DNA of 64,000 bases from Chitinolyticbacter albus (GTDB lineage Bacteria > Pseudomonadota > Gammaproteobacteria > Burkholderiales > Chitinibacteraceae): contig NZ_JANBVF010000014.1 in assembly GCF_024437655.1 (NCBI RefSeq), forward strand, positions 1 through 64,000, written 5' to 3'. A model generated the notes under the pieces. It searched no databases and had not been told where the DNA came from. It saw nothing but the letters and a program-made list of their open reading frames with translations. The translations under genes and the position numbers were made by a program. Shown here one piece after another: positions 59,917 through 62,375 of the stretch (within the stretch, counting starts at the first letter, position 1; each line of letters begins with the position of its first letter).

Positions 59917-59942
59917 AAAGCCCTCCTGACGGAGGGCTTTTT
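59917..59942 (+). terminator. Terminator after the sulfite reductase operon
   Basis: AAAGCCCTCC and GGAGGGCTTT around TGAC form a 10-bp stem followed by further T residues, 28 bases after the DUF934 stop codon. Confidence 0.93.
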
Positions 59943-60086: not shown

Positions 60087-62057
60087 ATGGTCAGGTTTAC
60101 ACTCAAGGCACTCGTCTGGACCACGTTGTTGGCGAGCGCGTGGCAGGCGCAGGCGGATGAAGTTGCAACGGTCCAGAATCGCCCGGACGACAGTACCGAC
60201 CGGCTGATCATCAAATACCGCAACCAGCCGCTGCTGCGCAGCCAGGCAGTAGCCGATCTGTCGGCCAGTACCGAATCGATCGGTGCGGCGCGCCTGGGTG
60301 TCTCAATGCGCAAGTTGCGTGACATGCACAACGGCGCGCGCGTGGTGAAGCTCGATCGCCGGGTCAGGGTGGAGCGACTGCGCGAACTCGCGCGCGAGCT
60401 CGCCGCCGCCGATCCCAGCATCGAGTACGTCGAGGCCGATACACTCAATTACGCCGATGCCACCACTAACGATCCGCAGCTGGGCTCGTTGTGGGGCTTC
60501 AAGGACACGGCCGCCGGCAGCAATGTGCTCGGCGCGTGGGATATCACCACCGGCCAGGGCGTGGTGGTGGCGGTGATCGATACCGGCTACCGGCCGCACC
60601 GCGATCTTGTGGCCAACATCCTGCCCGGTGCCGACCTGATTGCCGAGGCGACCCGCGGCAACGATGGCGACGGCCGTGACCTCGATGCCAGCGATCCGGG
60701 CGACTTCGGCACTTGCGACGGCACGCAGCGCAACAGCGGCTGGCACGGCACCCACGTGGCCGGCACCATTGCCGCCGTCGGCAACAATGGCGAAGGCGTG
60801 GCCGGCGCGGCGTATGGCGCCCGTGTGGTACCGGTGCGCGTGCTCGGTGTGTGCGGTGGCTATACCTCGGATATCGCCGACGGCATGATCTGGGCTGCCG
60901 GCGGCGATGTGCCGGGGCTGACCCGCAACGCCAATCCGGCCAGGGTGCTGAACTTGAGCCTGGGCGGCACCGGCAGCTGCGGCACCACCTACCAGAACGC
61001 GATCAATTACGCGCGCGCTCAGGGCGCGGTGGTCGTGGTGTCCGCCGGCAACGACAATGTCGATGCCAGCACCAAGCGCCCGGCCAGCTGCAACGGCGTG
61101 ATCACCGTGGCGGCGACGACCAGCAGCGGCGCGCGCGCCAGCTATTCCAACTTCGGCAGCATGGTCGAGATCGCCGCGCCGGGCTCGTCGGTGCTCTCCA
61201 CCGTCAATACTGGCACGACCAATCCGGTGGCGGATGGCTACGGCAGCAAGAGCGGCACCAGCATGGCTGCGCCGCACGTATCGGCTGTCGCTGCTTTGAT
61301 GCTGTCGGCGAACGCCAAGCTCACGCCCGATCAGGTCGACCAGATCCTGCGCAGTACCGCCAAGCCCATGCCCGTGGCCTGCCCTGAAGGCTGCGGCGCC
61401 GGCCTGATGAACGCTCGTGCCGCCGTTGAGCAAGCCAAGGCGCTGGTGGTCACCACACCGACGCCGGCGCCTACCGCTGTGCCGACTCCGACCAAGGTGC
61501 CGACTCCCACGCCGACCAAGGCACCGACCCCGGTGACGCCAACGCCGGTCTCGAGCAGCTGCTATGCGGCCTGGAGCAGCAGCGCCGTTTACACGGGTGG
61601 CCAGCGCGTGACCTATAACGGCCGCAACTACGAGGCCAAGTGGTGGACGCAGAACAACGTGCCTGCCGGCAGCACCGGCGAGGGCAAGCCGTGGCTCGAG
61701 TTGGGCGCCTGCGGCGGCAGCGTGCCGACTGCAACTCCGCAGCCGACCCCGCAGCCGACAGCGACGCCCACGCCGCGCCCCGCCGTGACGCCCACGCCGC
61801 AACCGACAGCCATACCCACACCGGCGCCGACCCCCCGTCCGACCAGCACACCGCTGCCCACCTCGGCGCCGACACCGACTTCGGTGGTGACGCCCGCGGC
61901 CTGCTACGCCGGCTGGAGCGCCGACGCGATCTACATGGCTGGCAACCGCGTCACCTACAATGGCGTGAACTACGAGGCCAAGTGGTGGACCCGCGGCGAG
62001 AATCCCGTCCAGTCCGGCCAGTGGGGCGTCTGGAAGATGGTGGGCGCATGCCGATGA
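60087..62057 (+). CDS. Secreted subtilisin-like serine protease with two chitin-binding modules
   Basis: A 656-residue S8 protease: signal peptide (1-23), I9-type propeptide (about 38-120; RLIIKYR ... PSIEYVEADTL), catalytic domain (about 135-450) with Asp165 (VIDTGYRPH), His220 (WHGTHVAGT), oxyanion Asn322 (SAGND) and Ser392 (GTSMAAPHVSA). Then a Pro-Thr linker, a CBM5/12-like module (YAAWSSSAVYTGGQRVTYNGRNYEAKWWTQ), a second Pro-Thr linker and another module (YAGWSADAIYMAGNRVTYNGVNYEAKWWTRGENPVQSGQWGVWKMVGAC). I use ATG 60087 (GGTGGGG upstream) instead of GTG 60075. It probably digests proteins embedded in chitin. A small lipoprotein gene follows by 21 bases. Confidence 0.93.
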   Translation: MVRFTLKALVWTTLLASAWQAQADEVATVQNRPDDSTDRLIIKYRNQPLLRSQAVADLSASTESIGAARLGVSMRKLRDMHNGARVVKLDRRVRVERLRELARELAAADPSIEYVEADTLNYADATTNDPQLGSLWGFKDTAAGSNVLGAWDITTGQGVVVAVIDTGYRPHRDLVANILPGADLIAEATRGNDGDGRDLDASDPGDFGTCDGTQRNSGWHGTHVAGTIAAVGNNGEGVAGAAYGARVVPVRVLGVCGGYTSDIADGMIWAAGGDVPGLTRNANPARVLNLSLGGTGSCGTTYQNAINYARAQGAVVVVSAGNDNVDASTKRPASCNGVITVAATTSSGARASYSNFGSMVEIAAPGSSVLSTVNTGTTNPVADGYGSKSGTSMAAPHVSAVAALMLSANAKLTPDQVDQILRSTAKPMPVACPEGCGAGLMNARAAVEQAKALVVTTPTPAPTAVPTPTKVPTPTPTKAPTPVTPTPVSSSCYAAWSSSAVYTGGQRVTYNGRNYEAKWWTQNNVPAGSTGEGKPWLELGACGGSVPTATPQPTPQPTATPTPRPAVTPTPQPTAIPTPAPTPRPTSTPLPTSAPTPTSVVTPAACYAGWSADAIYMAGNRVTYNGVNYEAKWWTRGENPVQSGQWGVWKMVGACR

Positions 62058-62078
62058 GGCTGCACCGGGGAAAGAGCG

Positions 62079-62375
62079 ATGCATGAACGATGGTGGGCCG
62101 CCGCGCTGGCGGCCGTGATGATCAGCGCCTGCGCCAGCCCGGTTGAAACTGGGCCCGCGCTCATCGTCAAGTTCAGGGATGATGGCCGGCGCGAGTCCGT
62201 GCTGGCCGAGCAGGCCAAACGACACGGCGTGACGCTGGGGCCGGGGCGCCCCCTTTCGCTCGGCACCTGGCTGTACCCGGTGACGGGGCGGGGCCGCGAT
62301 GCCTTGCTCGCCGATCTCGTCAAATCCCCCGAGGTCGATTACGCGGAATGGGACAGCCTCGTCACCACGCAATGA
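62079..62375 (+). CDS. Small lipoprotein resembling a free-standing subtilase propeptide (I9-like)
   Basis: A 98-residue protein with a signal sequence and lipobox ISAC (Cys18). The mature part follows the I9 pattern of the upstream protease propeptide: ALIVKFRDD aligns with RLIIKYRNQ, a central helix-rich segment follows, and DALLADLVKSPEVDYAEWD aligns with RELARELAAADPSIEYVEAD. GGGGAAAGAG precedes the ATG. It starts 21 bases after the protease stop. A role as membrane-anchored inhibitor or intermolecular chaperone of the protease is inferred from this likeness and location. Confidence 0.72.
   Translation: MHERWWAAALAAVMISACASPVETGPALIVKFRDDGRRESVLAEQAKRHGVTLGPGRPLSLGTWLYPVTGRGRDALLADLVKSPEVDYAEWDSLVTTQ

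What the first reader, a model, noticed from the sequence alone, without database searches (positions are those of the whole stretch)
60087..62375. Chitin-binding subtilase paired with a lipid-anchored, free-standing propeptide-like protein
The 98-residue lipoprotein downstream of the S8 protease keeps the pattern of the protease's own I9 propeptide (LIVKFR versus LIIKYR; VDYAEWD versus IEYVEAD) but has its own lipobox and no protease domain. Stand-alone I9 inhibitors are known (fungal Pleurotus inhibitor, yeast IB2, some bacterial propeptide-like proteins), yet a lipoprotein form in an operon with a chitin-anchored protease could be a self-protection device: the cell surface would carry the inhibitor while the protease works on chitin at a distance.
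Basis: partly seen in the sequence, partly recalled or inferred. Interest (0 to 1): 0.75.

Follow-up and report, generated by a model that had tools for sequence, protein, structure and literature searches.

The report
Lipid-anchored inhibitor paired with subtilase
A small lipoprotein that looks like a detached copy of a protease's own built-in brake sits beside that secreted protease in many bacteria, and its tail often ends exactly where the protease would normally cut, so it is probably a safety catch that keeps the cell from digesting itself.

Summary
ORF 62079-62375 (98 aa) has a lipobox and an I9-propeptide-like domain, 21 bp after a CBM5/12 subtilase (60087-62057). Pfam misses the I9 homology, but a profile made only from protease prodomains finds it (iE 3.2e-8); in the PDB the five best sequences for the stand-alone profile are subtilase propeptides, weakly (E 0.003-0.14). 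The pair is conserved: in the window's family 13 of 13 genomes with the protease have the lipoprotein, against 2 of 24 without; of 33 members found genome-wide 29 adjoin an S8 gene, in either order. Evidence on function: the Glu-x-Asp cap is kept; 14 of 35 members stop exactly at the propeptide's P1; nine carry Pro at P1'; tails resemble the partner's propeptide tail (12 lineages, p 0.00085), though not well in the window itself. Best reading: a lipid-anchored, product-like I9 inhibitor protecting the envelope from an exported subtilase. Binding and inhibition are unshown. Chitin is local: 7 of 10 partner proteases scanned lack CBM5/12. New variant of a known kind.

The parts
59917..59942 (+). 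terminator-like hairpin with T run after the DUF934 gene, separating it from the pair
   Evidence: read by eye in the sequence; the consensus scan did not list it
60087..62057 (+). secreted S8 subtilase: signal peptide, I9-like prodomain, catalytic domain, two CBM5/12 domains
   Evidence: GTG 60075 is an alternative start
60147..60458 (+). prodomain stretch (residues 21-124), ends VEAD-TLNYAD; predicted cut before A125
   Evidence: homology to mature enzymes of known structure: residue 2 of chain 5yl7 aligns with residue 126; profile matches
60552..61400 (+). Peptidase_S8 domain, PF00082
   Evidence: E 2.9e-61
61569..61688 (+). CBM5/12 copy 1
   Evidence: residues 495-534
61902..62054 (+). CBM5/12 copy 2 (limits by eye)
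   Evidence: one search reports two stretches; limits read from the repeat
62079..62375 (+). stand-alone I9-like lipoprotein, 98 aa
62079..62132 (+). lipoprotein signal peptide with lipobox ISA-C18 (+2 residue Ala)
   Evidence: sequence
62154..62354 (+). predicted alpha/beta domain, residues 26-92
   Evidence: block means of pLDDT 91-95 for residues 31-90
62346..62354 (+). E90-x-D92, equivalent of the propeptide residues that cap helices of the catalytic domain
   Evidence: nearly invariant in A3; role from passages of PMC6993865
62355..62372 (+). C-terminal tail SLVTTQ, six residues, ending at the P1 position of the propeptide register

Best explanation
The lipoprotein is a stand-alone I9 inhibitor of the neighbouring subtilase, tethered by lipid to the cell envelope (most likely the outer membrane, facing the periplasm). 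The protease is made with its own prodomain, crosses the inner membrane, folds and cuts itself in the periplasm, and is probably exported by a type II system. If active enzyme appears too early or stays behind, the lipoprotein docks like a propeptide: its beta-sheet on the enzyme's surface helices, capped by E90 and D92, with its C-terminal tail in the non-primed sites up to S1. Because the chain stops at P1 (or carries Pro at P1' in a sister clade) there is no bond to cut, so it stays as a product-like stopper. The exported enzyme leaves the tethered inhibitor behind. Shown: homology, linkage, lipobox, cap and tail register, likeness of tail to the partner's propeptide across the family. Inferred: binding, inhibition, location, purpose.
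For: Homology: prodomain-only profile hits the lipoprotein at iE 3.2e-8; the five best PDB sequences for the stand-alone profile are subtilase propeptides (E 0.0032, 0.0039, 0.05, 0.082, 0.14; matches mostly over the last 23-38 profile positions). Linkage: 13 of 13 family genomes with the protease have the lipoprotein against 2 of 24 without (Fisher 2.9e-8, kinship ignored); 29 of 33 genome-wide finds lie beside an S8 gene on the same strand; over all 31 adjacent pairs 15 are downstream and 16 upstream, five with 4-bp overlaps. Lipobox: 31 of 35 by one rule, none of the 31 with Asp at +2. Cap: Glu in 33 of 35 and Asp in 33 of 35 (motif placed by me). Tail: 14 of 35 end exactly six residues after the motif, three end at five, nine have Pro at P1'; 0 of 28 readable partner prodomains have Pro there. 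Partner likeness: all 28 pairs, mean BLOSUM62 3.29 against -2.34 shuffled; one pair per lineage (12, chosen by me) p 0.00085. In L038 P1 is Gln in both proteins where its eight clade relatives have Met in both. The partners keep a prodomain of their own, so a chaperone in trans is not needed on that ground. The genome has a GspD over the curated cut-off. In print: giving YIB2 and POIA1 the six C-terminal residues of the BPN' propeptide raised their potency on subtilisin BPN' (passage of PMC10580911).
Against: No binding or inhibition data. The complex model failed (mean pLDDT 42.8). Foldseek's top matches are ACT, acylphosphatase and S6 folds; a 91-residue chain of an Aspergillus alkaline protease entry, presumably its propeptide, is only rank 16. 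In the window itself P1 is Gln where the own propeptide has Asp by homology, and the six-residue tails are not alike. Nine of 35 tails run past P1 without Pro at P1'. Four of 33 members are orphans. Most protease relatives in the class sample lack such a neighbour: 9 of 69 places have one. [quoted passage not shown]
Confidence: 0.67

Rival explanations
1. It is mainly a membrane-tethered folding helper (second propeptide or foldase) for the protease, as ORF2 is for the Aeromonas sobria protease or Lif for lipases, and inhibition is secondary.
For: Partner gene with propeptide homology beside the protease, like asp-orf2; ORF2 is both chaperone and inhibitor (IC50 84.3 nM), and asp-orf2-like operons are reported in Vibrio, Shewanella, Chromobacterium and Pseudoalteromonas (passages of PMC5638518). 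The membrane tether resembles Lif (recalled).
Against: ASP is a propeptide-deficient protease that needs ORF2 (title of reference 17 and passages), whereas the proteases here keep a prodomain. Tails without a cuttable bond fit an inhibitor at least as well. In two Chitiniphilus species the lipoprotein is present where the neighbouring protease is absent.
Confidence: 0.17
2. It is an inhibitor, but its main target is another protease: a second S8 enzyme of the cell, or proteases of competitors or hosts.
For: Orphan copies in G003, G013, G452 and G446; G003 and G013 have S8 genes elsewhere, and their tails lost the TTQ end. The window's own tail does not resemble its neighbour's propeptide tail, and its genome has a second S8 gene.
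Against: 29 of 33 lie beside an S8 gene and over the family tails match the partner's propeptide better than shuffled partners.
Confidence: 0.11
3. It is a non-functional or decaying duplicate of a prodomain that happens to carry a signal peptide.
For: Short, no database family, orphans exist.
Against: dN/dS about 0.15, with dS near saturation; conserved cap residues, lipobox and tail in distant lineages, both gene orders.
Confidence: 0.05

Closest known systems
Stand-alone propeptide-like inhibitors of eukaryotes: POIA1, yeast YIB2 (IB2), Arabidopsis SPI-1, TgMIC5, Plasmodium SUB1-ProM
   Same: Detached propeptide-like domain that inhibits subtilases; short C-terminal tail toward the active site; the SUB1-ProM gene lies next to three of four subtilisin-like genes (passages of PMC6993865; PMC10580911)
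   Different: Here bacterial, with a lipobox, in an operon-like pair, and with tails that often stop at P1 or, in one clade, carry Pro at P1'
Aeromonas sobria ASP and its external chaperone ORF2
   Same: Gene just downstream of the protease, C-terminal residues at the catalytic site, inhibits the enzyme; similar operons in four other genera (passages of PMC5638518)
   Different: ASP is propeptide-deficient and depends on ORF2; no lipid anchor is mentioned in the passages read; homology with ORF2 was not tested here
I9-type prodomains of the Pseudoalteromonas arctica and Dichelobacter AprV2/BprV subtilase group
   Same: The window protease's catalytic domain is closest in the PDB to these; the lipoprotein is homologous to prodomains of the wider group
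   Different: Separate gene with lipobox, no protease domain
Lipase-specific foldase Lif (recalled)
   Same: Membrane-tethered partner encoded beside a type II-secreted hydrolase
   Different: Unrelated domain; a foldase, not a propeptide mimic

Membership tests
Peptidase inhibitor family I9 (propeptide-like) | Sequence homology to subtilase propeptides | tested here: met
   prodomain-only profile iE 3.2e-8; best five PDB sequences are subtilase propeptides, weak E
Peptidase inhibitor family I9 (propeptide-like) | Match to Pfam PF05922 above its cut-off | tested here: not met
   no hit for the window lipoprotein; 2 of 24 members match at E up to 1, best 0.2; 7 of 24 match the prodomain model PF22148, best E 0.00065. 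The window protease's own prodomain also misses PF05922, so the model is not sensitive here
Peptidase inhibitor family I9 (propeptide-like) | Beta-alpha-beta-beta-alpha-beta fold | tested here: inconclusive
   predicted order E-H-E-H-E with short bridges between, pLDDT block means 91-95 for residues 31-90; alignment of 4 rows, one of them a prodomain; Foldseek and VIA-align matches are generic plait folds
Peptidase inhibitor family I9 (propeptide-like) | Helix-capping Glu-x-Asp, and a tail that reaches P1 | tested here: met
Peptidase inhibitor family I9 (propeptide-like) | Inhibits a subtilase | not testable with these tools
   needs purified proteins
Bacterial lipoprotein | Signal peptide with lipobox cysteine | tested here: met
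   ISA-C18; 31 of 35 members by one rule. Lipidation itself is not testable here
ASP/ORF2-type external chaperone | Partner protease lacks its own propeptide | tested here: not met
   the window protease and 27 other partners whose tail could be read carry a prodomain
ASP/ORF2-type external chaperone | Homology to ORF2 | not tested
   the ORF2 sequence was not compared

The most novel reading that the evidence does not exclude
A widespread, so far unnamed family of lipid-anchored 'stopper' proteins in Pseudomonadota gives the producing cell immunity to its own exported subtilases, much like an immunity protein for a toxin. Each stopper has evolved an uncuttable product tail, by ending at P1 or by Pro at P1', that tracks the specificity of its own protease.
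Probability: 0.48. Interest if true: 0.75.

Novelty: new variant of a known kind. Interest (0 to 1): 0.62.

Why it matters
It would help explain how Gram-negative bacteria that pass a potent subtilase through their periplasm avoid digesting their own envelope, and it would give a bacterial counterpart to the eukaryotic propeptide-like inhibitors. The tail register makes each gene pair a natural readout of protease specificity and allows simple tests: tail truncation, one added residue, P1 swaps. The protease group includes AprV2/BprV-type enzymes, which are of interest in disease and industry (recalled).

Tried and rejected
Pfam and NCBIfam for the lipoprotein: no family. A single-protein scan of genome contigs found nothing; the full alignment had no conserved stretch; a narrower one gave two Chitiniphilus records. 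The viral-contig scan with the catalytic domain found no relative. Complex of lipoprotein and catalytic domain: the alignment had 3 rows, the catalytic part was not folded, so docking is untested. Recent duplication of the neighbour's own prodomain: the tree puts the window-clade lipoproteins and their proteases' prodomains on separate starred branches, but the AU test does not reject joining them (p 0.435), nor a single origin of the 24 stand-alones in that tree (p 0.213): the number of origins is unresolved. In the 50 rows shown I see no subtilase propeptide by title; that is no evidence against the fold. A possible further stand-alone frame at G866:C4 (304 aa) was not examined; a two-domain I9-like protein (L167) was left out of all counts. 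In some searches at most 12 and 11 first-look candidates per genome were scored, and one search missed the L162 gene that one search found, so counts of stand-alones are lower bounds. Promoter scan: none found. Papers: the listings of searches showed no paper on a lipid-anchored bacterial I9 protein (search 30 listed 20 of 126, search 60 10 of 617; only open-access texts are held; one search was on the chitinolytic host and gave nothing of use). PMC12546842 (passages) was not relevant. The 2015 paper on the ASP-ORF2 complex is not held. Representatives for the tail test: the 17 left out L109 and L273, whose partner tails were readable; adding them back gives p below 1 in 20000, and all 28 pairs likewise.

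Full report
What is there. The window holds a 656-residue secreted subtilase at 60087-62057 and, 21 bp downstream on the same strand, a 98-residue ORF at 62079-62375. Pfam gives Peptidase_S8 at residues 156-438 and two CBM5/12 stretches for the first, and nothing for the second. Upstream lie a nitrite/sulfite-reductase gene and a DUF934 gene, followed by a terminator-like hairpin that I read by eye at 59917-59942; downstream an ABC transporter ATPase ORF starts at about 62431. The scan listed no + strand terminator-like site between protease and lipoprotein (it also missed the hairpin just named).

Is the lipoprotein an I9-type domain? Pfam I9 does not see it, nor the protease's own prodomain. 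I therefore used profiles. A profile from stand-alone lipoproteins picks up the prodomains of neighbouring proteases. In reverse, a profile made only from the stretches before the catalytic domain (92 proteases in 87 of 89 loci; those with more than 60 residues before the domain) picks up the window lipoprotein at iE 3.2e-8. Against the PDB sequences the stand-alone profile's five best sequences are proteinase K (matched in its propeptide part), an extracellular serine proteinase propeptide, and prosegments of subtilisin BPN' (two) and subtilisin E; the E-values are weak (0.0032 to 0.14), the matches cover mainly the C-terminal third, and the next hits are unrelated at 0.2. The predicted model has the order E-H-E-H-E with pLDDT block means of 91-95 for residues 31-90; the alignment had four rows, one of them a prodomain. 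Foldseek returns the generic ferredoxin-like plait (ACT, acylphosphatase, S6), with short chains of an Aspergillus alkaline protease, presumably its propeptide, at ranks 16 and 17. So the homology rests on sequence profiles; the fold agrees but is not specific.

Is the pair conserved? In 37 genomes of the window's family, 13 have the protease at E 1e-40 or better, and all 13 have the lipoprotein; 2 of the other 24 have it too. Over the searches that looked for the lipoprotein anywhere in a genome (61 genomes, 43, 369, 398, 63, 31; the sets overlap), I counted 33 stand-alone members by a short open frame or, for G003 and G013, an internal start. Of these, 29 lie directly beside an S8 gene on the same strand; the four others (G003, G013, G452, G446) do not. 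For one of the 29 (L276) the protease is cut by the contig end and was judged by eye. Two more members were found by looking beside proteases (L162, L191), giving 35 in all, 31 of them adjacent: 15 downstream and 16 upstream of the protease. L162 lies between two proteases and is counted as upstream. Five pairs overlap by 4 bp (L034, L107, L108, L110, L191). Both gene orders speak for a functional tie and not for one frozen neighbourhood. The tie is not universal: of 69 protease places in the class sample 9 have such a neighbour (8 genes), several of the 69 being cut by contig ends.

Orphans. Both genomes have other S8 genes. Their tails end GRVAR and GAAARR, while the four paired members of this clade end in TTQ or HTQ. 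This is what relaxed or redirected selection would give.

The tail. Solved mature enzymes of this group begin at or next to the residue aligned with A125 of the window protease (residue 2 of 5yl7 aligns with 126), which is the seventh residue after the E-x-D motif; the sixth is P1. The same count gives a plausible cut in most prodomain tails that could be read. In the stand-alones 14 of 35 end exactly at the sixth residue and three at the fifth; nine, all of one clade of the window's family (genera g5 and g11), run three residues further with Pro at P1' in all nine; the other nine run past P1 by 1 to 16 residues without Pro at P1'. None of 28 readable partner prodomains has Pro at P1'. Counted by lineage, 6 of 15 end exactly at P1 (the grouping is mine). 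Peptide bonds before Pro are poor substrates for serine proteases (established knowledge), so both solutions leave nothing easy to cut. The tail residues resemble the partner's own propeptide tail more than those of other partners: all 28 pairs 3.29 against -2.34 shuffled; 17 representatives p 0.00025; one pair per lineage, 12 chosen by me, p 0.00085. Kinship is thinned, not removed. P1 is identical in 13 of 26 pairs with a full tail, nine of these from the one clade. L038 has Gln at P1 in both proteins where its eight clade relatives have Met in both; in L277 and L279 P1 is Arg in both. The window itself is a counter-example: Gln against Asp, SLVTTQ against TLNYAD.

The motif before the tail. 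E90 and D92 are near invariant: Glu in 33 and Asp in 33 of 35. The corresponding Glu69 and Asp71 of the BPN' propeptide cap helices of the enzyme, according to passages of PMC6993865. The same paper describes SUB1-ProM, a stand-alone propeptide-like inhibitor encoded next to subtilase genes in Plasmodium; there the C-terminal segment with the capping residues was not required for parasite growth.

Lipid anchor and route. By one fixed rule 31 of 35 stand-alones have a lipobox, against 17 of 96 proteases; a looser rule gives 34 of 35, the exception being L191. None of the 31 has Asp at +2; by the E. coli rule (recalled) this means the outer membrane. The genome has a GspD over its cut-off (E 1.1e-182), so type II secretion through the periplasm is likely for the protease.

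How it most likely works. See Best explanation. Homology, linkage, lipobox, cap and tail register are shown; docking, inhibition, location and purpose are inferred. The nearest bacterial precedent, ASP with ORF2, combines chaperone and inhibitor (IC50 84.3 nM), and like operons are reported in four other genera (passages of PMC5638518); but ASP lacks a propeptide, whereas the proteases here keep theirs. That, the uncuttable tails and the tether make an inhibitor likelier than a folding helper.

Chitin. Ten partner proteases were scanned, of 31: 3, all of the window's family, have CBM5/12; four have the S8 domain alone, one a PPC and two a PKD domain. Chitin binding belongs to the protease of this family, not to the inhibitor pair as such.

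Origin. The 80-column tree cannot settle whether stand-alones arose once or several times: best tree 7 changes, one clade not rejected (p 0.213); joining the window clade with its own prodomains is not rejected either (p 0.435).

Corrected: partner proteases without CBM5/12 (7 of 10), class places with a neighbour (9 of 69), wording of model confidence and papers. The poor tail match in the window and its second S8 gene raise the 'other target' rival slightly and lower the best explanation from 0.68 to 0.67.

Noticed in passing
L029 5096-7006 and 2949-5024; L274; L162: The same-genus genome G001 has two subtilases in tandem followed by one lipoprotein; L274 has one lipoprotein before two proteases, and in L162 one lies between two.
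   Followed up: no
L036 3026-5839: An S8 protease of G015 has a lipobox of its own (LLTAC), so the protease itself may be a lipoprotein with an I9-like prodomain.
   Followed up: no
L167 2487-3254: A 255-residue protein beside a subtilase seems to hold two I9-like stretches in tandem and ends six residues after QPN.
   Followed up: no
L034 2710-4380; L040 3018-5009; L045 3087-5072; L046 2624-4858: Several related proteases end in a Gly-rich stretch, a hydrophobic segment and basic residues, like GlyGly-CTERM sorting signals (name recalled).
   Followed up: no
L117 5971-6285 and L118 5896-6213: Two Chitiniphilus species keep the lipoprotein after the DUF934-like gene without the protease, and its tail sequence has changed.
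   Followed up: partly
L269 3875-4327 and L271 3854-4345: Two genomes of another class carry the lipoprotein with no S8 gene found within the fetched 10 kb.
   Followed up: partly
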